NCBI GenBank assembly: GCA_903813345.2
Contig: CAIIXF020000002.1
Location: 32,506,109 to 32,570,108, forward strand
Reading direction: 5' to 3'
DNA from: Owenia fusiformis
Taxonomy: Eukaryota > Annelida > Polychaeta > Sabellida > Oweniidae
DNA: 64,000 nt
The position numbers were made by a program, and so were the translations under genes. Position 1 is the stretch's first letter, and the number at the start of each line of letters is the position of its first letter. This document shows, one piece after another, positions 1,644-64,000 of the stretch. Under the pieces are notes generated by a model. It was not told where the DNA came from. It saw only the letters and a program-made list of their open reading frames with translations, and searched no databases.

Positions 1644-3340
1644 CTCTCCTCCAACAATACCAGTCCCAGCAGCAAGGTCCAGGACTGGTGCACTCTTGTC
1701 TTCAATATATTCTGCCAACACTCTTGCAGCAGCCAATGGTGTTGTGCTGTTATACCCGTTGAGAAGAAGATCCTGAATTGAGAAAAAATGTAATATGTAT
1801 TTTTCTACTTTACCTTGAACATGTCAAACTTGGGAATCAACAGGATGCTTAAAAGTACAGACTTGAGGAAATTCAGGATTTATGTAACTATATTCATAAA
1901 TGGATGGTAAGCATTGTGGATAAATAACTAATTAAAACTGATTGATTCGCAAGATTAAAACCATAACCATTGCATTGATGTCATATTAAATACATTAATT
2001 TATTAGAATAAACGGATCGATACATGGAACTCCGAACATTTTTATACACTGAACGCTCATAGGCGTAACCAGGGGATGCGATGTGTGCGAACGCACCCCA
2101 TCTCGCATAACTTATAAAAATAGAACGCGTAGTACGGGTTCTATTAGATAGAACTTTAAAATGCTTTATATTTGAAGCTTCTAGCTAAATGTTTAAACCC
2201 CCCGCACTAACTGAAAGCCGGCTACGCTCTAGTTCAACGTCGTTAAACTCAATAACGGCGTTCTTTATTATTAGGAATTTTCTTGGGGCCATTATTGAGT
2301 TTAACCTCCTTACTATTCTTTCCTTTGATGCAAGTTCTGAATCCATCGAAACCATTTTTCCGCGATAACGTGCAACTGATACTTGACAATAATATAAAAA
2401 CACATAACATCAAGCGATTTAACACAATATTATTGTGTTAAATGTTCATTTATACGAGTAAAATGAGGCTACACTTACCAATCTTTAAAGTGACACTTCC
2501 GCATGTCCGTCATTGTGTCTGTTCGTCTGAGTGTCCCGGATCGTAAAATTAAACTACCAGCGAAACGAAATTGTTGTCAAATAGATTGATAATTATTATC
2601 GCGATTACTCGGGATAAAAAGATCAATTTTGAGGATAACAGGTGTCTTTGATTAATTTATATAGCGCGTATATACACGCAAAATAGTTATTAATTGCAAA
2701 CCAACTGTTCGTTAATGCAGTGCCGTGATGACGGTTAATTCCTGAAACGATTTGCAATTTCGATGTTACCGAAACTGACCGACATTTTCGTCATATTCCA
2801 AACCTGTCTCCAATATTTTCGTAATTATGCATCAATAGGGTCTAAGGGGGATACGGGACGGGGTGTATGTGTTTATAAGGTATGTATGCATGCTTGAATC
2901 ACATTCTTTGTGTAATATTGCCATGTTTTCAGGGTTCAATTAGTTCCGCTTGTCGAAACCTGCTGAACGATTAAATTAACGCATCCAAGGCAAAATGGTC
3001 ATGGAGGTTAGACCTAGCCGGGCCATAACACATGTCAGATAAGAAACGAGGCCCGGGCTAGGTCTAATGTTGTTGGACTAGCTACGCTCCTGTTGTCATA
3101 CTTTTATTATTCACAAAGAATATTTGTTATACAGGAATAAAAACTGTTGAAACTTTATACATGCACATGTACCTTGTCATAAGTTGTTGCCCAATCTTTA
3201 TATATATCATCAACGTCTGTTTGTGTGAGGTTTGGCCGTGACACTTCTGTAAACAGCGCATGCGCATCATCTGCGGTCTTTGCCCCAGCACCAAACACAA
3301 CTTCAGCAGATCTTGAAGGAGTCTTAGATTCTGGAGGCAT
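1644..3340 (-). CDS. METTL27-like: METTL27-like methyltransferase, copy A (5' part only)
   Basis: Predicted SAM-dependent methyltransferase of the METTL27/WBSCR27 type; the substrate is not known to me. Coding exon 1 is 3173-3340 (56 codons, ending in TYDK, donor GT at 3172-3171). Exon 2 is 1644-1772 (43 codons) and carries SAM-binding motif I, LDLAAGTGIVGGE; both exons are phase 0. The ATG chosen (3340) matches the MSE start of copies B and C. An open frame continues upstream to 3397, but an AG splice acceptor just above it suggests that part is leader. Exon 1 has a seven-codon insertion (PPESKTPSRSAE against SETDE). Exons 3 to 5 are not found down to base 1, so the gene leaves the window or is truncated. 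A second, damaged exon 2 follows at 1504-1640. Confidence 0.75.
1773..3172. other. intron 1 of METTL27-like copy A
   Basis: No coding signal. 2060-2240 holds a block resembling the GGCGTAACCAGGGG-type repeats also seen near 54.6 and 55.3 kb, here without the long C tract. The rest is unremarkable. Confidence 0.5.
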
Positions 3341-3519
3341 GTCGATTACTTCAGGAGCAGCTATATATTCTACAGAAGGCACTCTACACAATGGCAACCT
3401 AGAAAAGGATATCTGAGTTTATTCATGTACAACTATACTGCACAACAGCTGATAATACCATTAAGCCAAATGGTAACTTCACTTTGACCTTTGAATCTCC
3501 TTACACTAAGGTCTCAGGG

Positions 3520-6500
3520 TAGTTGAAGAAAGTGACAAAAGAGTAAGACGTAAAAAGATTTTGGATTTTTTTATTTGAACGAAGATCACAGTTCTGTTTT
3601 GACATTCAGTCAGTTTCACTAGTTCCACATATTTACATCACCAGGGTCACATTGGGCATGGACAGACCATAAACATGACGAAATTGCGTTTTCACTCCTC
3701 TGAAAATCTGAGTGAAAAATAGTGTGTATGGAATTTTTATGCAATCCTCATTGGAGTGTCAGGTTATTTTCAAATATAAATTCCTCCTTCCCCATATTCT
3801 CTTCAACTTTCAATTTCTCACAATGAGTGTACTTCTACACTACATAATACATAGAAAGGTGTGAAGAATATTTTCTTATAGAACGTATGAAAAATGACAA
3901 AATACAGTGACCTACATTTTGTACTAATAAAACGTACACGGTAGGTCACTGAATTCTTTCGTTTCTTCTCCATTTTATAAAAAAATGCAAAGCACCTTTC
4001 ATTTTGAGCAATTTATTGACATACACTGTATATTCTGTTCAGTTAACGTTTAAGGTACATCTGGAAAATAACATTTTGGTAAAAAAATTGCTATACAGTT
4101 GGGGACAAAAATAAATGACAGGTCGATTTTCGATCACCATTTCCTAATTATGGTGGTCTGAAAGCCCATAATTTCCAATATTGTCTAGATATATATCCCT
4201 TAAAATTTGTATATTTTACATTTTGTATAATCTCATCCACTGATGTATGGCCTCTTGTAAATTCTCTTATTTTTAACATGGGAAATCCTCACTTCAGCAA
4301 ATCCACCTGTCATTTATTTATGTCCCCAACTGTACCTGCACATGTTATTTTTTGGTACAAAATAAAGCATGAAGGCATGTGTCAATTTCCTTGTTTTTTC
4401 AGGAAAGTATCATTACATTGTCTTCTTTTCGTATATCTGGAAGGAGTTCAATGAGAACTCCAGGAAATTCTGATATTTCACACTTTCTATTTTTCCAAAT
4501 TTTCTTTCAAAGTTTCCAGACAACACAGGAGCTACATGTACCATTGACATGCTTTCAGGTTTACTAAAAGTAGAGTGTAATAACATGTGCATGACAGGTA
4601 TTCCATTTTTACCAAAATGTTACTTTCCAGCTGAACCAAACAGGAAATTAAAAAAACATGTGGACTTTAGAATTTTTTGAAATAAGATAACCGAGTTTTT
4701 CAGTCACAATTTCATTGTGCTGAAAAATCTATTTCATAATCATAATGTTTAGGGTCAACTGGTTACTTTTGAAGCGGTGTAACAGACTGTACACAGATCT
4801 TCTTTTAGTAAAATTGCTAAGAGGTCAATGGTAACTACCAAGAGTTGCTAATATTACAAATAAAAACATGCAAAATGGCCGCCTTTTCAATTTTCCAAAT
4901 GTCTTGTCCAGTTTCTCAACAACACTCGATTGCATACAAGAATTCATTTCTAATCCACGAAACCCTAGATAACAAGGATGCTTTCCAGACAAATGCAAAG
5001 ACGTACACCCATGTCTCAATACTTTATTTTTACCAGAAAATAATATGTGCAGGAATAGCAATTTTTCAAAAATGTTTTCTTGAACATGTGCCTAAATGTT
5101 GGAAAATCGAAAAGGCGACAGTTTACTTTTGAATGTATTTTTTGAAATAGAATTTCCTGCAGTTGGCATTTAATTACTTCTTACCAGATTTACTAAAAGA
5201 AGACGGTACAATATTATTTTTCTTGATAAAGTAAAATATGATTTCATATTTCACTTGGACCAGAAAAATAACGCACAAATAAACCTACCTCGTGAAGTTC
5301 CGGAATATCGTCTGCCAATAAAACTGTTGGTGGTGTATTCTTTGGTTCGTGAGTGATCATGAGTCAACATGATTCCATAATCCGGCTACAGATACTGTTT
5401 TACGACATCCTATTGGTTCGCTATATTTTGGGGCTGAAATCGCGTTCGAATTGAGCGTTGTCAAAATCAATAAACTCTTTTGCGTTCGAATTGTGACTTC
5501 TCTTCCCAAGATCAGTAAAACTGCCTATCTCAGGCCTCCTAGACTTCCAACAACGCGAACATCAGTTCTGATACCACGAACTACGTTCTTTGCACTCGAA
5601 CCACGAATCTCATATCGCGAACGTGAAATCTTATGTCGCGCACCACCATTTCCTTGTTTCCGAACATATTTCTTATACCACGCACAGAGATCCGTAACCG
5701 CGAACAATTTGTACATAATACATCCGGGTGTTTGGGATTCCAGGTTACATGTATATACCAATGCAACGGAGTGAAACAAGGAAACGAAATTCAGTTTCAC
5801 CTCCGCTTTCGCCGGACTTTCGTTCCTTTGAAAAGCATGCAAGATTAACAACACGCCTCGAGTTGGCAGGGCTTTAAATGATGTGTCAAAGGACAGCACA
5901 GCACAACGACCCATTCTGATACTCAGACCATCTCTGTTATGCACAAGAATGGTGTAGAAGGAAACTGAGAGAAGGTTGTGATATCTCACGATGACAATGA
6001 CCAGTCCATGGTCAGAATGACCATAGACATGATGAAATTACTTTTTCAGGCCTCTGAAATTTGTGACTGAAAAATAGATAAAAGTAGGAGCTTAGGAAAG
6101 GTCACTGAACAGAATCTCTTGCATTTTTCAGAAAATGTGCCTAATATATTGCTCTCAGTGATACAATCTTGGGAAATTTGATATCATTCGTTGAAAAAGA
6201 AAAAAAATGAAAAAACTGAATTGAAAAGCGATCGTTTTTCCTTTCAATGACCGCCATTTCTCAGACAAGTTTCTAAAATTTTAGATTGTATCATTTAGAG
6301 CAATATATTGGGCACATTTTCTGAAAAATTCAAGAGATTCTGTTCATTGAGCTTTCCTATGCTCCTACTTAAAGCTATTTACAGTGACCTTTTCAGAGGC
6401 CTGAAAAAGTTATTTCATCATGTCTAGGGTCATTCTGACCATGGTCAGTGTGATCCTGGTCATGTAAATGGGATGTGGAATTAGTTAAACTGACTGGAGG

Positions 6501-31628: not shown

Positions 31629-32056
31629 TTAAGTCCATCAGCTCAGTAGCCGAGGACAGTTCCAGATGGCTTTGGATCAGAAGGAAAGAAAAGTGGAACC
31701 CAAAAGCCACCAAGTCCACCTAAGTTCCACTAGAACAAGTGTTTATGTGGTCTACCACCAGACCACAAGGTGTTCCATATGCTTGCATACGGGTGGATGT
31801 AGGAGTTGCGTACACGACCGTACCCAACCTCACACCGATATTCAAGCATGTTCTAGTTTCCCCTTTGGCCTACCATTCCCATCCCATCCCTAGTCCAGCA
31901 TAACATGCATAAGTCTTAGCAAAGCATCACGGATGTTTAATGAATGAGTTAACTGGCAATAGGTGGCTCAATGTTATAGCCCTATGATTTGACGAGTGGT
32001 GAGCTTTAATACATTTCGTGATATCACACTTTTGAACAAGGCATTAACATGACAAA

Positions 32057-33748
32057 ATGTCACCACCTAAAACAATTTGGTCAATTCAAAGCAAGTTGGA
32101 AAATACCTTTTGACCTTAAGAAGGTTTGATTTGAACTTCTTAGAACATGTAGATGATTTTGAAAAAAAAATTCGTCAATTTGAAGCAAGTTGAAAAAATA
32201 TCTCTTTGACTTTTTTTGACATTGAGAAGGTCATTGAAGGTCAAATGTCAAATTTAAGTCAGATTTGAACTTCTGAGAACATGTAGATGATTTTGAAAAA
32301 AAAATTAAGTAAATTTGAAGCAAGTTGAAAAAAGACCTTTTTGACCTTTTCAAGGTCATTGAAGGTCAAATGTCAAATCTAAAGTCAGATTTGAACTTCT
32401 GAGAACATGTAGATGATTTTGAAAAAAAATTAGTCAATTTGAAGCAAGTTGAAAAAGACCTTTTTGACCTTGAGAAGGTCATTGAAGGTCAAAGGTCAAA
32501 TTTAAAGTCAGATTTGAACTTCTGAGAACTTGTTAAGTCAAATTTGAACTTCTGAAAAGATGAAGATGATTTTGAAAAAAAAAATTGGTCAATTTGAAGC
32601 AAGTTGAAAACAGACCTTTTTGACCTTTTTTGACCTTGAGAAGGTCATTAAAGGTCAAATGTCAAATCTAAATTCAGATTTGAATTATTGAGAACATGTA
32701 GATGATTTTGAAAAAAAATTAGTCAATTTGAAGCAAGTTGAAAAAAGACCTTTTTGACCTTTTTTGACCTTGAGAAGGTCACTGAATGTCAAATGTCAAA
32801 TCTAAAGTCAAATCTAAAGTCATATTTGAATTTCTGAGAACATGTAGATGATTTTGAATAAAAAATTTAGTCAATTTGAAGCAAGATGAAAAAATACTAT
32901 TTTGACCTTTTTTGACATTGAGAAGGTCATTGAAGGTCAAATGTCAAATCTAAAGTCAAATTTGAATTTCTGAGAACATGTAGATGATTTTGAAAAAAAA
33001 ATTTAGTCAATTTGAAGCAAGTTGAAAAAAGACCTTTTTGACCTTTTTTGACTTTGAGAAGGTCATTGAAGGTCAAATGTCAAATCTTAAGCCAAATCTA
33101 AAGTCAGATTTGAATTTCTGAGAATACATAGATGATTTTGAAATTTTTTTTTAGTCAATTTGAAGCAAGTTGAAAACAGACCTTTTTGACCTTTTTTGAC
33201 CTTGAGAAGGTCATTGAAGGTCAAATGTCAAATCTTATGTCAAATCTTAAGTCAGATTTGAATTTCTGAGAACACGTAGATGATTTTGAAAAAAAAATTT
33301 AGTCAATTTGAAGCAAGTTGAAAACAGACCTTTTTGACCTTTTATGACCTTGAGAAGGTCATTGAAGGTCAAATGTCAAATCTTAAGTCAGATTTGAAGG
33401 TCAAATGTCAAATCTAAAGTCAGATTTGAATTTCTGAGAACATGTAGATGATTTTGAAAAAAAATTTAGTCAATGTGAAGCAAGTTGAAAAAAGACCTTT
33501 TTGACCTTGAGAAGCTCATTGAAGGTCAAATGTCAAATCTAAAGTCAGATTTGAACTTCTGAGAACATGTAGATGATTTAGAAAAAAATTGAAGTCAGTC
33601 TAAACAGCATTTGTTAAGTTATAGGAAGTTGTAAGAAATTGTTACAGACGCCGGACGCCGGACGCCAGACGCCGGACGCCAACCACCAACCGCCGTCGCA
33701 AAAAAATGGAGACCATAACAATATGTCACCACTTTTGGTGGTGACATA
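32057..33748. mobile_element. tandem-core element with hairpin tip, family F2
   Basis: The left tip ATGTCACCACC is repeated as the arm of a terminal hairpin at the right end (ATGTCACCAC, 5-base loop, GTGGTGACAT at 33723-33747). Between them are about eleven units of roughly 125-175 bp around GTAGATGATTTTGAAAA, GAAGCAAGTTGAAAA and GAAGGTCATTGAAGGTCAAA. A GC-rich minisatellite (CGGACGC units, 33645-33690) sits just before the hairpin. No ORF. It resembles pearl/HINE-type elements from memory. A second copy enters at 63821. Confidence 0.72.
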
Positions 33749-35700: not shown

Positions 35701-37987
35701 TAGACTCCAGATTGAAAATCTGGAGTCTATTGCTTTTGCCAGTTTTCTTATTATTATTATTCTCTCTTGTCACGTTTTCTCAGTAACTAGAAGACTTGGA
35801 GTAAATCTACTTACATGGTCAGTTAGGGTATGTGACCTAGTTTCTGGGAAATTAGGTCAAATTTTTATCTAGGTCAAAGGTCAAAATCTAGGTCAAATTA
35901 TCATTTTGTCAATTATCTTTGTCATTTTTCGATATTTTTTCACAATTTTTTTTTTAACGTGTAGCCAATAAAAAGATGATTCGACTGTGTGTGATCGGTT
36001 TTTTGATTACGTCTACCGATTTTGAGATATGGCGACCTGAAAGTAGGTCAAACTAAAAAGTTAACCAAATTTAACATATGAGCTATGAAATAAGTGTAAA
36101 ATTTTCTCAGGAATCTGAATCTGCAAACCAAAATCCAATCCGACTTCCGGTTCGAAAGTTAAGGCGTTTTGAAAATTTCGAGAAAAATCGATCTGTTGAT
36201 ATCCTGATAGAAAGTCAAGAGTAGCAAAGAAAATATAGAAAAAATCATCCATCCTTCCTTCCTATCCTGTCTGATCATATCCTTCCTATTTATCCTTCCT
36301 TTCTATCCTTTCCTTCCTATCCTATCCTTCCTTCCTATTCTATATCCTATCCTATCCTAGAACTGGGTCAAATCTTACATTTTCAATATTCTATCAATTA
36401 TCTTCGTCGTTATTTATCGAAACATCTCCATCTTTTGATCATCATGTAGCTTATAAACAGCCCATTTATAAGTGTGCCATCCGTTTTTTGATTACTCTTA
36501 CTGATTTTGAAATATGGCGTCTGGAAAGTAGGTCAAAACAAAAAATCCTCCAAATTCAATGTATGAATTATAAATTAGGAGTAGAACTGTGTCAGGAATC
36601 CGAATCTGCAAACCAATTTTCAATCCGACTCTCGGTTCGGAAGTTATGACGTTTTGAAAGCTCAAAAATCGCTAAATTTGGTGCCCCATATTATGTCTAT
36701 GAGAAAAAAGATTTTTTTGATGTGTAAAATACCAGATATAGACTGAGTACAGCTTAACATTCTAAAAGCCCATGAAAGAATGGGACTTCGAAGGCTATCT
36801 ATCTTTAAAATTTGGACACCAAAATGCCCAGGTCAAAATCTAGGTCAAATTCATAGTTTTTCCTTATTTTTGCGATTCTGACATTACACTTTAAAGATTT
36901 GCTTCAAAATTTTGAATACAGGTAGCAAAGAATGTGCTAATAGTGTTAGCCTTTTGCCGTCAGAAAGTATTTTGACCCACTTCTGAGATATGGTGTCCGA
37001 AAAGTAGGTCAAAATAAAAAAAAATTCAAATTTAACATATGAGCTATGAAATAAGAGTAGAATTTTCTCAGGAATCTGAATCTGCAAACTAAATTTCGAT
37101 CCGACTGCCGGTTCGGAAGTTAAAGCGTTTTGAAATCTCAAAAATCGCTCAATTTGGTGCACCATGTTAAGTCAATGGGAAAAAAGACTTTTTTGAAGTG
37201 TAAAATACAAGATATAGACTGGGTAAAACTCAACATAATGAACTTTTATTAAAGAAGGGGACCTCAAAAGCTACATAGCTTCAAAATTTGGACACCAAAA
37301 TGCCTAGGTCAAAATCTAGGTCAAATTCATAGTTTTTCCTTATTTTTACGATTCTGACACTACACTTTAATAATTTGCTTCAAAATTTTGTATACAGGTA
37401 GCAAAGAGTGTGGTTATAGTGTTAGCCTTTTGCCGTCAGAAAGTATTTTGACCCACTTTTGAGATATGGTGTCCGGAAAGTAGGTCAACACAAAAAGTTC
37501 TCCAAATTCAACGCATGACTTGTGAACTGAGGGTAGAATTTTCTCAGGAATCCGAATCTGCAAACCAAATTTCGATCCGAAGTTATGGCGTTTTGAAATC
37601 TCAAAAATCGCTATTTTGGTATCCCATGTTATGTCAATGGGGCTGAAGAAAATTATGAATTGTAAAAACACGAGATACAGCCTGGAAACAGTCAACTTAG
37701 TGAAAGCAGATCTCAAAACCCCCTTTGCATTAAAATTTGGACACTAAAAGGCCTAGGTCAAAATTTAGGTCAAATCTATAGTTTTCCTTATTTTTACGAT
37801 TCTTACATTACACTTTCATAATATTCTTCGAAATTTGGTATACAGATAGCAAAGAGTATGCTAATAGCGTTAGCCTTTTGCCGTCAGAAAGTATTTTGAC
37901 CCACTTTTGAGATATGGTTTCCCAAAAGTAGGTCAAAATAGAAAATGCTCCAAATTGAACGTATGGGTTATGTTCAAAAATTAGATA
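35701..37987. repeat. tandem array of about 475-bp units with a palindromic start
   Basis: It opens with the palindrome AGACTCCAGATT, 3-base loop, AATCTGGAGTCT (35703-35729). Five units follow, marked by TTTGAGATATGGNGNCCNNAAAGTAGGTCAAA near 36010, 36500, 36985, 37462 and 37908, each with a GAATCTGCAAACCAAATTTC block. The fifth unit is interrupted by the mariner relic and related sequence resumes at 39090-39290. It may be one end of another tandem-core element; the other end was not found. Confidence 0.6.
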
Positions 37988-40529: not shown

Positions 40530-42870
40530 TTATGTTAAAAAGTGACTGACAAATGGTCGGATGTTGATCATATGTAAGGACCAAATATCCAAATCTTATT
40601 AATCAACAAACCATATATAAACTGAAATGAATAAAAACATTGTTGTAAAAAACAAATATCCAACTTTGATCTTCACACAGTACACATACAGTAACTTGAT
40701 TAACAGTATGGCATTTAAAAAATTACAGGGCTAATTATCAGTCAATTTTTATACTTTAGCTTCATTTGAACTAAGTTATCATTTTGTTTCCAAAATATTA
40801 AATTATTAAGCTCAATAGCTAAATGATATTTACTGGGGTAAGTCGCTCCCCTCACACCACCCTCTCTCTGTGTATACATGTATATAATAACACAATTATA
40901 TATACAGATAAAAAGAGACTTACTCCAGTGAGAGATGAGATATATAGTTTGCAAGAGAAAGAGGGAGACTTGTTCCATTTCTTCATTTGACTCCCTTATA
41001 CCATATATGTATCATTATATCACATATATGTGGAATTCAAAACTTTTAAGCAGTCTACCAGATAGTTTAACATCTAGTAGAATGTTCATGCCTCAGGTGT
41101 ACAAAACATGTACTTCTCGAAATTGAGAAATCCTACAGCGACTATAGAAAATCTATGGTCACTTCAAGGTTGCAAAGTACCATATTCCAATGAAGAAAGA
41201 ATCTGTGACGAACGTAGAAAGTCCACGAACGTCTCTATAGCAATCATAGAAATTATGATTGCCTCAGGGTCTACAGCGTGTCTATGAGTTTACTAATAGT
41301 AGTAGATTGCCTGACCGCCATAGCAAATGTGACTATATTGTCACATACCATCACCAATACTATGATGACACTGTACAGCAATCATAGAAATTATGATTGC
41401 CTCAAGGTCTACAGCGTGTCTATGAGTTTACTAATAGTAGTAGATTGCCTGACCGCCGTAGCAAATGTGACTATATTGTCACATACCATCACCAATACTA
41501 TGATGACACTGTACAGCAATCATAGAAATTATGATTGCCTCAAGGTCTAGAGCGTGTCTATGAGTTTACTTATAGTAGTAGATTGCATGACCGCCATAGC
41601 AAATGTGACTATATTGTCACATACCATCACCAATACTATGATGACACTGTACAGCAATCATAGAAATTATGATTGCCTCAGGGTCTACAGCGTGTCTATG
41701 AGTTTACTAATAGTAGTAGATTGCCTGACCGCCCTAGCAAATGTGACTATATTGTCACATACCATCACCAATACTATGATGACACTGTACAGCAATCATA
41801 GAAATTATGATTGCCTCAAGGTCTACAGCGTGTCTATGAGTTTACTAATAGTAGTAGATTGCCTGACCGCCGTAGCAAATGTGACTATATTGTCACATAC
41901 CATCACCAATACTATGATGACACTGTACAGCAATCATAGAAATTATGATTGCCTCAAGGTCTAGAGCGTGTCTATGAGTTTACTTATAGTAGTAGATTGC
42001 ATGACCGCCATAGCAAATGTGACTATATTGTCACATACCATCACCAATACTATGATGACACTGTACAGCAATCATAGAAATTATGATTGCCTCAAGGTCT
42101 AGAGCGTGTCTATGAGTTTACTTATAGTAGTAGATTGCATGACCGCCATAGCAAATGTGACTATATTGTCACATACCATCACCATTACTATGATGACACT
42201 GTCTGTACAGCAATCATAGAAATTATGATTGCCTCAAGGTCTACAGCGTGTCTATGAGTTTACTAATGGTAGTAGATTGCATGACCGCAATAGCAAATGT
42301 GACTATATTGTCACATACCATCACCCATACTATGATGACACTGTACATCAATCATAGAAATTATGATTGCCTCAAGGTCTACAGCGTGTCTATGAGTTTA
42401 CTAATAGTAGTAGATTGCATGACCGCCATAGCAAATGTGACTATATTGTCACATACCATCACCATTACTATGATGACACTGTATTTTATCTTTGAGAATG
42501 AATGTTAAGAAGTGAATGACAGATGGTCGATGTTGATCATAATGTAAGGAAAAAATATCCAAATCTTATCAAGCAACAAACCATTTGTAAATTCACATAA
42601 ACTTAATTGTTGGACCAAATATCCAAGCTTGATCTTACCACAGTACACATACAGTAACTTGGTTAACAGTATGGTACATTTCTTTCCAAAAGATAAAAAT
42701 ATTAAACTTAATAGCTAAATGATGCTAACTTGAGTAAGTTGCTTAATGAGTCTCATACATTAATATAATTCAATATACATATTCCAAAAATATATTATAT
42801 ATATATTGACAGTTTTTGAAATAAAACTGTGCTATCAAAAACTTATAAGCAGTCTACCAGGTACACATAG
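40530..42870. repeat. direct duplication enclosing a minisatellite
   Basis: 40530-40830 and 42505-42740 are direct copies, sharing GTTGATCAT, AAATATCCAAATCTTAT, CAGTACACATACAGTAACTT and TTAATAGCTAAATGAT words. Similarity continues weakly to 41060 and 42860 (CTTATAAGCAGTCTACCAG). The 138-bp array lies between them. Confidence 0.65.
41278..42490. repeat. 138-bp minisatellite, nine units
   Basis: Units start at 41278, 41416, 41554, 41692, 41830, 41968, 42106, 42248 and 42386; one 4-base insertion precedes the eighth. Each holds two perfect hairpins, CAATCATA-gaaat-TATGATTG and TGTGAC-tatatt-GTCACA. As 138 is a multiple of three, units read through as a repeated 46-residue frame (MSMSLLIVVDCLTAIANV), broken where CTACAG has become CTAGAG. 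I treat this as noncoding. Confidence 0.85.
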
Positions 42871-43454: not shown

Positions 43455-43797
43455 CTAGAATATATAAAAACAGGTACAATAATAATTTGGTGTCATGACT
43501 CAATTCCAAATTCTAATTACTACGCAAGTAGCCCACCTTTAGTTTTGATAATACCACTATTTCATGATTATTCAGTTGGGCAATTACTGCAAAAGTGCAT
43601 TTATCATGATCAGGCTTATTACACCTAATAGCCAAATCATGTGGCAAAAATCATATTCACTACATCAAAAAGACTGAATGAATGAATTCTATATTTCATT
43701 TTTGGCAATATGTCTAACAATATGTCACCACTTTTGGTTTGGTTGTGTCAATGTGTCATATAAAAACCAGAACAACGGCAACGCCAAAGCGTAGCGA

Positions 43798-44547
43798 ATC
43801 CCATCGAACAGAAATGGCTGGCATTTTTACAAACAAAATACCAGGTTGTTCAATAAGTTCACGGAAAAATGCTCTCATTTCAAAGATTTTTGATATTTTC
43901 TCATGAAATTTTCACATAATGTATAGAAAATACTTTCTGATTGATTCTTAAAATATCAGTGTCTCTTATTTGAATTGTCAAAAATAAGGGTTATTATGGT
44001 AACTTGACTTTTGGGTAGGCGGGGCACTTTTTACGTCTACAAAAAGTGTCTTTAGACAGTGTGCAATGTTTATAGTATTCACATACCAAATATGAACAAA
44101 ATCGCTCCACTACTTTTCGAGTTACAGCAAAAATCGTAAAATAACGAGTAAAGGCCGCCATTTTTCAAGATGGCTGCCATGTGCTTTTTTAATATCTACA
44201 TTTGTAGCTTTATTAATGTCCTTTATAATTTTTTTACACTAAAAACATATTGCTATTACAGTTTTACATATTGCACCTAAATTACTGTAAAATCGGCACT
44301 AAAATGGCCGCCATTTTGAAATGAGCGGCCATTTTGAAAATCGGCTTTCGAGCAGAACTTCTACTCCCATAGAGTATATGTGTACAAAATATGAACAAAA
44401 TCGGGCCAACAGTATTTGAGTTATTGCCCGGACGGACGGATGGACGGACGGACGTACGGATGGACGGACGGACGGACGGACGGACGTACGGACGGACAAA
44501 CGGACGGAGGCGTTCCCTATATCCCTCAGAACTTCGTTCGATGGGAT
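43798..44547. mobile_element. hairpin-ended repeat family F1, copy with ATCCCATCGAAC ends
   Basis: Left tip ATCCCATCGAAC (43798-43809) is matched exactly by the right tip GTTCGATGGGAT (44536-44547). Just inside the right tip is a near-copy of the left tip, forming a hairpin with TTC loop, preceded by a long GACG/GACGGACG tract (44428-44508). The body has AAAATGGCCGCCATTTT and GAGTTATTGCC blocks also seen at 160-640 and 59.9-63.5 kb. No ORF. Confidence 0.72.
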
Positions 44548-58649: not shown

Positions 58650-58748
58650 AAAACTTGCTTGCTTCTAGTTGAAAATCCCTTTGAAATCAGTTGAGAAATT
58701 GGATCATCAAAGTTTACAAAACTAGAACAAGGCACAGACGTGAACAAT

Positions 58749-59829
58749 ATCGTACCTAAAACACAGCAGTGTGACAGTGAAGAATTTAGGACAGAAAATC
58801 CAAAATGGCCACCTTAAAATTTACCCAGAATGCCCAAAAACTAATCAGTTCTTAACTTTGATACATAGAAACATCCCTGAAAATTTCAGATGAATCCATC
58901 AAATGGTTTAGCTGGAAACCTGTAGACAAGTCTTGAAAGTGAAGGACGGAAGGACGTTTAGGACGGAAAATCCAAAATGGCCACCTTAAAATTAACCCAG
59001 AATGCCCAAAAACTAATCAGTTGTTAACTTTGATATGTAGAAACATCCCTGTAAATTTCAAATGAATCCGTCAAATGGTTTGGCTGGAAACCTGTAGACA
59101 ATTCTTGAAAGTGAAGATTTTAGGACGGAAAATCCAAAATGGCCACCTTAAATTTTACCCAGAATGCCAAAAAACTAATCAGTTCTTAACTTTGATACGT
59201 AGAAACATCCCTGAAAATTTCAGATGAATCCGTCAAATGGTTTGGCTGGAAACCTGTAGACAAGTCTTGAAAGTGAAGATTTTAGGACGGAAAGTCCAAA
59301 ATGGCCACCTTAAAATTTACCCAGAATGCCCAAAAACTAATCAGTTGTTAACTTTGATATGTAGAAACATCCCTGTAAATTTCAAATGAATCCGTCAAAT
59401 GGTTTGGCTGAAAACCTGTAGACAAGTCTTGAAAGTGAAGATTTTAGGACGGAAAATCCAAAATGGCCACCTTAAATTTTACCCAGAATGCCAAAAAACT
59501 AATCAGTTCTTAACTTTGATACGTAGAAACATCCCTGAAAATTTCAAATGAATCCGTCAAATGGTTTGGCTGAAAACCTGTAGACAAGTCTTGAAAGTGA
59601 AGATTTTAGGACGGAAAATCCAAAATGGCCACCTTAAATTTTACCCAGAATGCCCAAAAACTAATCAGTTCTTAACTTTGATAGGTAGAAACATTCCTGA
59701 AAATTTCAGATGAATCTGTCAAATGGTTTGGCTGGAAACCTGTAGACAAGCTGAAAAGTGAGACGCCGCCCGCCGCCCGCCCGCCGCCCGTCAAGCTGAC
59801 GACAATATCGTACCTTTATTAGGTACGAT
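58749..59829. mobile_element. hairpin-ended tandem-core element F3, six core units
   Basis: Left tip ATCGTACCT (58749-58757). The right end is the hairpin ATCGTACCT-ttatt-AGGTACGAT (59807-59829), preceded by a GCCGCCC tract (59763-59790). Six units of about 162 bp begin near 58790, 58965, 59122, 59285, 59446 and 59608 (GGACGGAAAATCCAAAATGG). Same family as 58402-58649, but with other tip bases and more units. Confidence 0.75.
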
Positions 59830-59856: not shown

Positions 59857-60212
59857 ATCCCACTGAACAAAACAAATTTTGATTGTAAGTGGCAATCTTG
59901 AAAATTCCTTCTTGAGCAGAGCTTGTTTGTCCCTAGACATATAAAATGTGAGCCATATCAGTCAATTAGCATTTGAGTTATCAAAGATTATGTTCTTTTA
60001 TGAAAAAAGGCAGCCATTTTGAATTGAGCAGCCATATTGAAAATTCCTTCTCGAGCAGAGGTAGTACATCCATTAAGGCATAAGCCTATAAAATTTGAAT
60101 CAAATCCGTCAGACAGTATTTGAGTTATCGCCTGGACAAACGAACAGACGGACGAATGGACAGACGAATGGATGGCTTTCCTATATCCCCCTCGAACTTC
60201 GTTCGGTGGGAT
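59857..60212. mobile_element. hairpin-ended repeat family F1, copy with ATCCCACTGAAC ends
   Basis: Left tip ATCCCACTGAAC, right tip GTTCGGTGGGAT, one mismatch between them. It is preceded by the hairpin CTCCACGGAG found beside other F1 left ends. The GACG/GAATGGAC tract (60140-60172) and inner arm TATCCCCCTCGAAC lie at the right. Confidence 0.65.
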
Positions 60213-62803: not shown

Positions 62804-63535
62804 ATCCCAACGAACAAAATATCAATTACCGAATTCCAATTAATTATACTCATTACTTTGGTTAAAATTGAAAAATTTAGATTTTAGAATTGCGAATTCC
62901 TGCAAAGCAGCCATTTTCTGAGGTACAAATCTGAAAAATAATACCATAATTGTGATCTACTCCAAAATTCCTTCAATTTGAGTATAATATAGCCATACTT
63001 TGAAGGGATCGAAAAATTATTGCGAAATCCTACATTAGACGGCCATTTTGAATTTTACGAGGCTCGAATCAGAAAAAAGATACAATATTTGCAATCTACT
63101 CCTAATTGCCTTTCATTTGAGTATAATAAAGCTATACTTCAGAAAGATCTAAAAATTAGCGAAAATTTCTGTTTTCCTGAACCCCCATACACGGCCCCTG
63201 GGGGTCAGGATGAAAAACAAGGAATATATGTGAAAAAGATAGATGTTGCGAATATACTACCTATATTTCAAACAATAATATTAATTACTTTGGCTTAGAA
63301 TGAAAAATTTATGATTTTTGCGAAAATGTCCCATCATTTTTAAAGCGGCGGCGATCTTGAAAAAAATTATTCACCAATATACATCTTTCCACTAAATATG
63401 AAGAAAATCCGTCTACTAGTATTTGAGTTATCTTCCGGACGGACGGAAGGACGGACGGACTGACTGACGGACAGACTGACTGATGGACGGACGGAGGGCT
63501 TCACTATATCCCTACCGAACTTCGTTCGTTGGGAT
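62804..63535. mobile_element. hairpin-ended repeat family F1, copy with ATCCCAACGAAC ends
   Basis: Left tip ATCCCAACGAAC (62804-62815), exact complement of right tip GTTCGTTGGGAT (63524-63535). A GACG/GACTGACG tract (63436-63495) precedes the inner arm TATCCCTACCGAAC and TTC loop. CTCCGCGGAG stands just outside the left tip. It lies in an intron of the Mask-like gene. Confidence 0.72.
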
Positions 63536-63820
63536 AATAATTCATGAGCCTCACTGAGCCTCAGTAAAATATTTTTAGCATACAAGTTAGCAGCTTCTTA
63601 AGTTTTGTCAAGAAAACCTCTGTATTTACTTCAAATCTATTTCATAGTGTAACAAAAAACTAAAACCTACCAGATTTTAGAAGGTACTTGACAAGCTCAA
63701 GGTGTCCTTCCTGTGCTGCCTCCATAAGCAGTCTCCCGAGTCTCCTCAGTCTGTGCATTGATGTCAGCCCCTGGTAAGACAATGACAAACAAATTACTAA
63801 CAAGGCATTAACATGACAAA

Positions 63821-64000
63821 ATGTCACCACCTAGTTGCTCACAATATTATGAGTTCAAACTTAAGTCAGATTTGAATTTCTGATAACTTGTTAAGTCAAA
63901 TTTGAACTTCTGAAAAGATGAAGATGATTTTGAAAAAAAATTTGGTCAATTTGAAGCAAGTTGAAAACAGACCTTTTTGACCTTTTTTTACCTTGAGAAG
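63821..64000. mobile_element. tandem-core element family F2, second copy (runs off the edge)
   Basis: Starts with the same ~30-bp left flank and tip as at 32040-32067 (GGCATTAACATGACAAAATG, then TCACCACCTA), then the same core units (TTAAGTCAGATTTGAATTTC; GAAGCAAGTTGAAAACAGAC). Cut by the window end. Confidence 0.75.

What the first reader, a model, noticed from the sequence alone, without database searches (positions are those of the whole stretch)
32057..33748. Three unrelated repeat families share one design: tip, tandem core, GC-rich tract, terminal hairpin
F1, F2 and F3 each have a short left tip X, a body (tandem units in F2 and F3), a GC-rich short tandem tract (GACG, CGGACGC or GCCGCCC) and a right end X-loop-X'. 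The right tip is followed by AT then A-rich sequence. This recalls, from memory, pearl elements of bivalves and HINE/Helentron ends, which would imply rolling-circle-type movement by a shared enzyme that reads structure more than sequence.
Basis: partly seen in the sequence, partly recalled or inferred. Interest (0 to 1): 0.78.

Follow-up and report, generated by a model that had tools for sequence, protein, structure and literature searches.

The report
Helentron-derived repeats and their autonomous parent
The three repeat families are short, protein-less offspring of rolling-circle jumping genes called Helentrons, and for the one at these coordinates the protein-coding parent, with the same ends and the same tandem-repeat core, is present elsewhere in the same genome.

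Summary
F2 is a 1.7-kb minus-strand element (window 32035-33747). The true 3' terminus (...GCCTTGTT) lies 22 bp beyond 32057. F1 and F3 have the same plan. The ends are abundant: 3,200 F2 3' ends, 477 F3 3' ends, 2,554 F1 5' ends, 0 for each reversed control.

A 12.1-kb Helentron (G000:C6:5172599-5184716; 2,508-aa open frame with Rep, PIF1 helicase and a C-terminal endonuclease) carries F2's ends and tandem core; copies on C10 and C11 share them. F2 is an internal-deletion derivative (HINE).

Paralogous empty sites for all three families show insertion at TT with nothing duplicated beyond the Ts. This is a new member of a known kind, Helentron/HINE. F1 and F3 parents were not found. Beyond the textbook: the satellite-like array sits inside the coding parent; an F3-like core lies under a different 5' hairpin; the 5' hairpin is tandemly multiplied in 9 of 87 listed F2 loci.

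The parts
32035..33747 (-). F2 element (HINE), 1,713 bp, 5' end at 33747, 3' end at 32035
   Evidence: both ends matched to genomic copies and to the coding element
33723..33747 (-). F2 5' end: subTIR plus its inverted copy = hairpin ATGTCACCAC-CAAAA-GTGGTGACAT
   Evidence: 1,012 exact 43-nt copies of this end in G000
33647..33695 (-). F2 GC-rich short tandem tract (GGCGTCC-like)
   Evidence: TRF rows; similar tract in the coding element
32128..33588 (-). F2 satellite-like tandem core (TRF periods 123, 148 and multiples)
   Evidence: 86.8% over 1,679 aligned positions to the coding element's 5' region
32057..32067 (-). F2 3' subTIR GGTGGTGACAT
32035..32056 (-).
   Evidence: 20 fetched copies (selected for an exact match to it) diverge after it, apart from L010 and L019, which share one flank
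63799..64000 (-). second F2 copy, 3' part only; its 5' hairpin is at G000:C2:32572452-32572476, outside the window
58726..59829 (-). F3 element (HINE): 5' hairpin ATCGTACCTAATAAAGGTACGAT at the high end, 162-bp tandem units, 3' end ...GTGCCTTGTT at 58726
43765..44547 (-). F1 element (HINE): 5' hairpin at the high end, CGGA/GTCC tract 44429-44508, 3' end at 43765
63436..63535 (-). another F1 5' end with its GTCC tract; 3' end not located
60182..60212 (-). another F1 5' hairpin; 3' end not located

Best explanation
F1, F2 and F3 are three HINE families: non-autonomous Helentrons, rolling-circle transposons of the Helitron superfamily. F2 is an internal-deletion derivative of a coding Helentron in the same genome. 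It keeps that element's 5' hairpin, GC tract and satellite-like array and its last ~150 bp, and lacks the ORF. Shown: shared ends and core, coding capacity of the parent, TT target without further duplication, a nested insertion, recent parental movement (two parental copies 99.94% identical over 3,340 bp). Inferred from established Helitron biology: the Rep HUH nuclease nicks at the TT|AT 5' end marked by the hairpin, PIF1 helicase peels off one strand, the 3' subTIR plus the short TGCCTTGTT terminus marks where transfer stops, and the strand is joined into a TT. The endonuclease may open the target. F1 and F3 probably moved by the same chemistry under other Helentrons, since lost or not located.
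For: Identical F2 ends at both termini of a Rep-helicase-endonuclease element; its C-terminal piece is homologous (29%, E 6e-17) to the endonuclease of another lineage, which passes Pfam's cut-off. Three parental copies, C6, C10 and C11, with both ends and the array in the parts fetched. C6 and C11 99.94% identical over 3,340 bp. Empty sites: F1 in L036 (three alignments to neighbouring array stretches) and in L031 (85% repeat beside it); F2 in L011 against 4 fetched of 40 listed copies; F3 in L053 against 4 fetched copies: TT becomes TT-element-TT. The C11 Helentron sits in an F1 copy, the 4 best of 20 F1 loci shown; there TTTT became TTTTT-element-T, the same number of added Ts placed differently.
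Against: No coding element with F1 or F3 ends was found at the Rep loci with a flank read (15 of 58 Rep matches, 10 of them on both sides, in stretches that may stop short of the ends). The 3' hairpin expected of HINEs is weak: F2 24, F3 55 and F1 20 of 200 shuffles fold at least as well. Pfam's endonuclease hits in the F2 parent are below its cut-offs (18.7 against 24.5 bits; 20.1 against 27.4) and that piece matches no solved structure at E <= 1. The 3' ends of the C10 and C11 parents end in GCCTTGT, one T short. Transposition itself was not observed.
Confidence: 0.95

Rival explanations
1. MITE-like elements moved by a DDE cut-and-paste transposase, the two tips being ordinary terminal inverted repeats.
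For: Both ends carry an 11-12 bp inverted repeat, and pearl was first described as a MITE (PMC7492417, passages).
Against: Empty sites show no target duplication beyond Ts. The inverted repeats are asymmetric: at the very 5' end, but 22-33 nt inside the 3' end. The F2 parent encodes Rep-helicase; its Pfam hits include no DDE domain.
Confidence: 0.02
2. Helitron2 (ATIR elements without endonuclease) rather than Helentron.
For: The terminal plan, a 5' hairpin made from the inverted repeat and a subterminal 3' copy, is the published Helitron2 plan as well (PMC3627910, passages).
Against: Lineage A has an endonuclease over Pfam's cut-off; the F2 parent has its homologue. TT targeting also fits Helentrons.
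Confidence: 0.05
3. Independent satellite DNA that only happens to be bounded by hairpins, spread by recombination or extrachromosomal circles.
For: F2 and F3 are mostly tandem repeats, and element lengths vary between copies.
Against: Fixed ends in hundreds to thousands of places, precise empty sites, and the same array inside a coding element with the same ends.
Confidence: 0.01
4. F1, F2 and F3 are all moved in trans by the one F2-type Helentron, which tolerates different subTIRs.
For: Same TT|AT start and layout; F2 and F3 share the terminal TGCCTTGTT, F1 has a one-base variant inside its end; no F1 or F3 parent found among the loci examined.
Against: Published families are defined by at least 11 bp of identical subTIR (PMC4067079, passages); other Helentron lineages exist here whose ends I mostly could not place, one probably with yet another hairpin.
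Confidence: 0.2

Closest known systems
HINE / DINE-1 (non-autonomous Helentrons), PMC4067079 (passages and one section read)
   Same: subTIRs of 11 bp or more, 5' hairpin, microsatellite, tandem repeats in some families, T-rich/TT target, no target modification, Rep-helicase-endonuclease partners with the same ends (shown there for mites, Culex and drosophilids)
   Different: 3' subTIR lies 22-33 nt from the end here (38-60 bp in the mite); 3' palindrome weak here; the coding parent itself carries a ~2.2-kb array
Cg_HINE elements of Crassostrea gigas, PMC7492417 (passages read)
   Same: subTIR + IR, GTCY-type microsatellite, satellite-like array, TT sites without duplication, several unrelated families in one genome, cores and flanks combined in different ways
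   Different: There the authors could not relate 10 autonomous elements to the Cg_HINEs; here the parent of F2 is identified and contains the array
Pearl elements of bivalves (as described in PMC7492417; original paper not seen)
   Same: Short arrays of ~160-bp repeats between fixed ends; re-classed there as non-autonomous Helentron
   Different: No sequence comparison made here; host of this window unknown
Helitron2 / ATIR elements, PMC3627910 and PMC5148889 (passages read)
   Same: Inverted repeat at the 5' end forming a hairpin, inverted copy subterminal at the 3' end
   Different: No endonuclease domain; target TTTT|T/C or TNAT|T in the cases given

Membership tests
HINE / Helentron | Subterminal inverted repeats of at least 11 bp | tested here: met
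   F1 12 bp, F2 11 bp, F3 11 bp, read from the sequences
HINE / Helentron | 5' subTIR pairs with a nearby inverted copy (hairpin) | tested here: met
   z -5.0 (F2), -6.5 (F3), -3.6 (F1)
HINE / Helentron | Palindrome/stem-loop near the 3' end | tested here: inconclusive
   a 4-bp plus 2-bp stem in F1 (20 of 200 shuffles as good); F2 24 of 200, F3 55 of 200
HINE / Helentron | Insertion at TT / T-rich site without target duplication | tested here: met
   TT before the start in 14 of 14 F2 and 9 of 10 F3 sites (one T was in the F3 search pattern; F1's 18 of 18 is not independent because TT was in its pattern)
HINE / Helentron | Autonomous partner with the same ends coding Rep and helicase | tested here: met
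   F2 only. Not found for F1 and F3 at the loci examined
HINE / Helentron | Endonuclease domain C-terminal to the helicase | tested here: met
   lineage A over cut-off; F2 parent homologous to it, E 6e-17, but under Pfam's own cut-offs and without a PDB match
HINE / Helentron | Placement in the Helentron clade of a Rep-helicase tree | not tested
   no tree built
Canonical Helitron (Helitron1) | 5'-TC and 3'-CTRR ends, insertion between A and T | tested here: not met
   ends are AT... and ...GTT, target TT
Helitron2 | ATIR ends, Rep-helicase without endonuclease | tested here: not met
   ends fit, but an endonuclease is present
DDE transposon / MITE | Target-site duplication and symmetrical terminal inverted repeats | tested here: not met

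The most novel reading that the evidence does not exclude
The satellite-like array is a standing part of the coding Helentron, between the 5' hairpin/GC tract and the ORF, not cargo gained after the ORF was lost. Arrays are exchanged between Helentron lineages that keep different ends, and the enzyme, or T-tract slippage, multiplies the 48-bp 5' hairpin unit. Helentrons would then be makers, not only carriers, of dispersed satellite DNA here.
Probability: 0.4. Interest if true: 0.55.

Novelty: new member of a known kind. Interest (0 to 1): 0.42.

Why it matters
It ties a high-copy, satellite-carrying HINE family to a recently moved coding parent in the same genome. Such pairs are known from mites and insects (PMC4067079); the oyster study of satellite-carrying HINEs looked for them and could not make the link (PMC7492417). 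Because the parent already carries the array, it speaks to that study's open question of whether HINE arrays are captured 'filler' or grow from the element itself. It also provides defined ends, empty sites and an open frame from which a Helentron transposition assay could be built.

Tried and rejected
Rfam scan of the window: no family at gathering score. A 4-kb DNA search downstream of the nearest Helentron (C2:32578011-32587089) was swamped by a ~1-kb repeat at query 2620-3620 and did not give the element's ends. Matching 10-12-mers across that element's flanks gave no convincing pair of ends. 3' regions of three further lineages (C6:27.1 Mb, C12:19.5 Mb, C5:30.8 Mb) carry none of the F1, F2 or F3 3' ends within 8 mismatches; the 2 kb fetched at C1:4671300 showed no F2 3' end. 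I suspected the C5:30.8-Mb lineage was an F1 parent with a reversed ORF, because an F1 5' end and F1-like body lie antisense downstream of it; no F1 3' end was found in the 10 kb fetched on its other side, so this is unresolved. The C-lineage Helentron (C1:21.1 Mb, C500) looked like an F3 parent because an F3-like array lies upstream of its Rep, but the hairpin before that array is a fourth type (ATGTCCCCAC...) and no matching 3' end was found in the stretches fetched. The L033 empty site was only approximate and is not counted. In the empty-site searches only 1 of 11 F2 sites and 1 of 9 F3 sites gave usable empty sites; each search scored only its 40 best candidates, so the rest are untested. 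Two slips in my notes: says 9 of 20 F2 loci have the 5' hairpin by strict match, one search shows 8; one search gives the parent's last base as 5184717, it is 5184716.

Full report
What is there. The window is G000:C2:32506109-32570108 of a 498-Mb assembly. The stretch 32057-33748 is almost exactly one element, F2, on the minus strand. Read 5' to 3' it runs: hairpin ATGTCACCAC-CAAAA-GTGGTGACAT (33747 down to 33723); ATTGTTATGGTCTCC and a T run; a GC-rich tract of GGCGTCC-like units; about ten tandem units of roughly 140 bp; then GGTGGTGACAT (the 3' subTIR, window 32067-32057) and TTTGTCATGTTAATGCCTTGTT, ending at 32035. A second F2 copy starts at 63799 and runs out of the window to C2:32572476.

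Other families. F3 occupies 58726-59829 and F1 43765-44547, both on the minus strand. F3: 5' ATCGTACCTAATAAAGGTACGAT, 3' ...TTAGGTACGATATTGTTCACGTCTGTGCCTTGTT. F1: 5' ATCCCATCGAACGAAGTTCGGAGGGAT and a GTCC tract, 3' ...GTTCGATGGGATTCGCTACGCTTTGGCGTTGCCGTTGTTCTGGTT, found by aligning 20 genomic copies to one another. Genome counts: F2 3' end 3,200 (<=3 mismatches), F3 3' end 477 (<=3), F1 5' end 2,554 (<=2), F2 5' end 1,012 (exact); the reversed controls give 0 each. With relaxed matching both ends were present in 13 of 20 F2, 9 of 12 F3 and 17 of 20 F1 loci fetched. The F2 and F3 loci were chosen for an exact 3' end, the F1 loci for an exact 5' end; all lie on contig C1.

The coding parent of F2. 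PF14214 (Helitron_like_N) matches 58 places in G000, many in open frames of about 1,500-3,400 aa, and 0 of 14 control genomes. At C6:5179499 the element around the Rep domain runs from C6:5172599 to 5184716. Its 5' end is ATGTCACCACCAAAAGTGGTGACATATTGTTATGGTCTCCGTTTTTTT followed by a GGCGTCC tract; its 3' end is AGGTGGTGACATTTTGTCATGTTAATGCCTTGTT. F2 of the window aligns to it at 86.8% over 1,679 positions from the 5' hairpin through the array, and at 80% over 167 positions at the 3' end. Its 2,508-aa frame (stop to stop, no stop inside) has DUF6570, Rep and PIF1 helicase over Pfam's cut-offs and, at the C-terminus, Exo_endo_phos-type hits under the cut-offs. That C-terminal piece is 29% identical (E 6e-17) to the endonuclease of the C2 lineage, which is over the cut-off at 48.7 bits; it has no PDB match at E <= 1. 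The Rep has PHIH, an HUH-type motif, and YISSY further on (motif names recalled). Copies on C11 and C10 have the same two ends, their 3' ends one T shorter, and the array in the parts fetched. C6 and C11 are 99.94% identical over 3,340 bp, so movement was recent.

Insertion sites. F1 in L036 lies in a tandem array whose neighbouring stretches are the empty site...ATCTTA-TT-ACACAATG becomes ...ATCTTA-TT-ATCCC...CTGG-TT-ACACAATG; L031 shows the same beside an 85% repeat. F2 in L011 lies in a repeat with 40 listed uninterrupted copies (88-92% identical); the four fetched join exactly after the 5' TT. F3 in L053 likewise against four fetched copies. The C11 Helentron lies inside an F1 element, and uninterrupted F1 copies give its site: TTTT became TTTTT-element-T. 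So nothing is duplicated beyond one or two Ts, and whether those Ts are target or element cannot be told, as in the published cases (PMC4067079, section read). Of 11 F2 and 9 F3 joined sites searched, one of each gave usable empty sites; each search scored only its 40 best candidates, so the others are untested, not negative.

How it most likely works. Established for Helitrons, inferred here: nick at the hairpin-marked 5' end by Rep, strand peeling by PIF1, termination at the 3' subTIR and terminus, joining into TT. Shown here: the parts, the parent and the sites. Short sequence is conserved alongside structure: TT|AT starts in all three; ATATTGT follows the 5' hairpin in F2 and F3, not F1; TGCCTTGTT ends F2 and F3, with a one-base variant inside F1's end. 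The 3' stem-loop is not supported by folding: F2 24, F3 55 and F1 20 of 200 shuffles fold at least as well.

Beyond the textbook. First, the satellite-like array is inside the coding element in all three F2-parent copies. Thomas et al. report tandem repeats in some HINEs (PMC4067079, passages); the oyster study left open whether arrays are captured or intrinsic and could not connect its HINEs to autonomous elements (PMC7492417, passages). Second, F3's unit is about 73-77% identical in its best stretches (E down to 3e-151) to an array upstream of the Rep domain of a different Helentron lineage (C1:21.1 Mb and C500). In both copies that array follows a fourth hairpin type, ATGTCCCCACCACATAGTGTGGGGCCAT, and a GTCY tract. 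This is probably that Helentron's own 5' end, but its 3' end was not found and a nested HINE is not excluded. Either way core and ends combine independently. An F1 element is nested in the array in both copies. Third, in the first 100 of 1,012 exact F2 5' ends listed, which fall into 87 loci, 9 loci carry 2 to 4 hairpin units 46-50 bp apart (counted by eye); the C11 parent carries two. In the five junctions whose letters I read (L012, L022, L088) a T run is followed by ATGTCACC, as at a flank-element junction; T-tract slippage or re-use of the internal T run as a boundary are both possible. My searches of the paper library were (titles and abstract starts seen; one search failed), and passages of four papers were read; none of those passages mentions hairpin multiplication, but this is not a full literature check.

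Limits. 15 of 58 Rep loci had a flank read, 10 on both sides, and the stretches may stop short of the ends. No F1 or F3 parent was found among them. The species is unknown. No Rep tree was built. Mobility is inferred from sequence.

Noticed in passing
L012:675-770, L022:89-280, L088:1832-1930; listing: The 48-bp 5'-terminal unit of F2 (hairpin + ATTGTTATGGTCTCCG + T run) is tandemly multiplied 2-4 times in 9 of 87 loci in the listed part, and twice in a coding copy on C11, where a truncated third recurrence of the 5' region follows at L088:2200.
   Followed up: partly
L092:2235-2310, L094:1391-1466, L034:1398-1478: A fourth hairpin-ended family (ATGTCCCCACCACATAGTGTGGGGCCAT + GTCY tract), upstream of the C-lineage Rep in two copies and next to an F1 copy in L034.
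   Followed up: partly
L060, L061, L062: The C-lineage Helentron has a further array of ~150-bp units, more than 3 kb long, starting about 1.2 kb into the fetched 3' region.
   Followed up: no
G000 contigs C13, C505, C515 and others: Many Helentron Rep copies sit in small contigs, several per contig tens of kb apart, many with open frames of ~3,000 aa; the lineage A copy near the window also has an OTU-type protease domain.
   Followed up: no
window 43715-43738: A 24-bp exact piece of F2's 5' hairpin region lies just beyond the 3' end of the F1 element at 43765.
   Followed up: no
L056, just after its F3 3' end: Another HINE-like 5' end (AGCTCACATGGTGAGCT, then GTCY units) directly follows an F3 element.
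   Followed up: no
window 41239-42483 and 36505-37972: Two further tandem arrays (138 bp x 9 at 96%; 476 bp x 3). A generic 5'-end scan of the window found only the F2 and F3 ends, but it also missed F1, so it is not sensitive.
   Followed up: no
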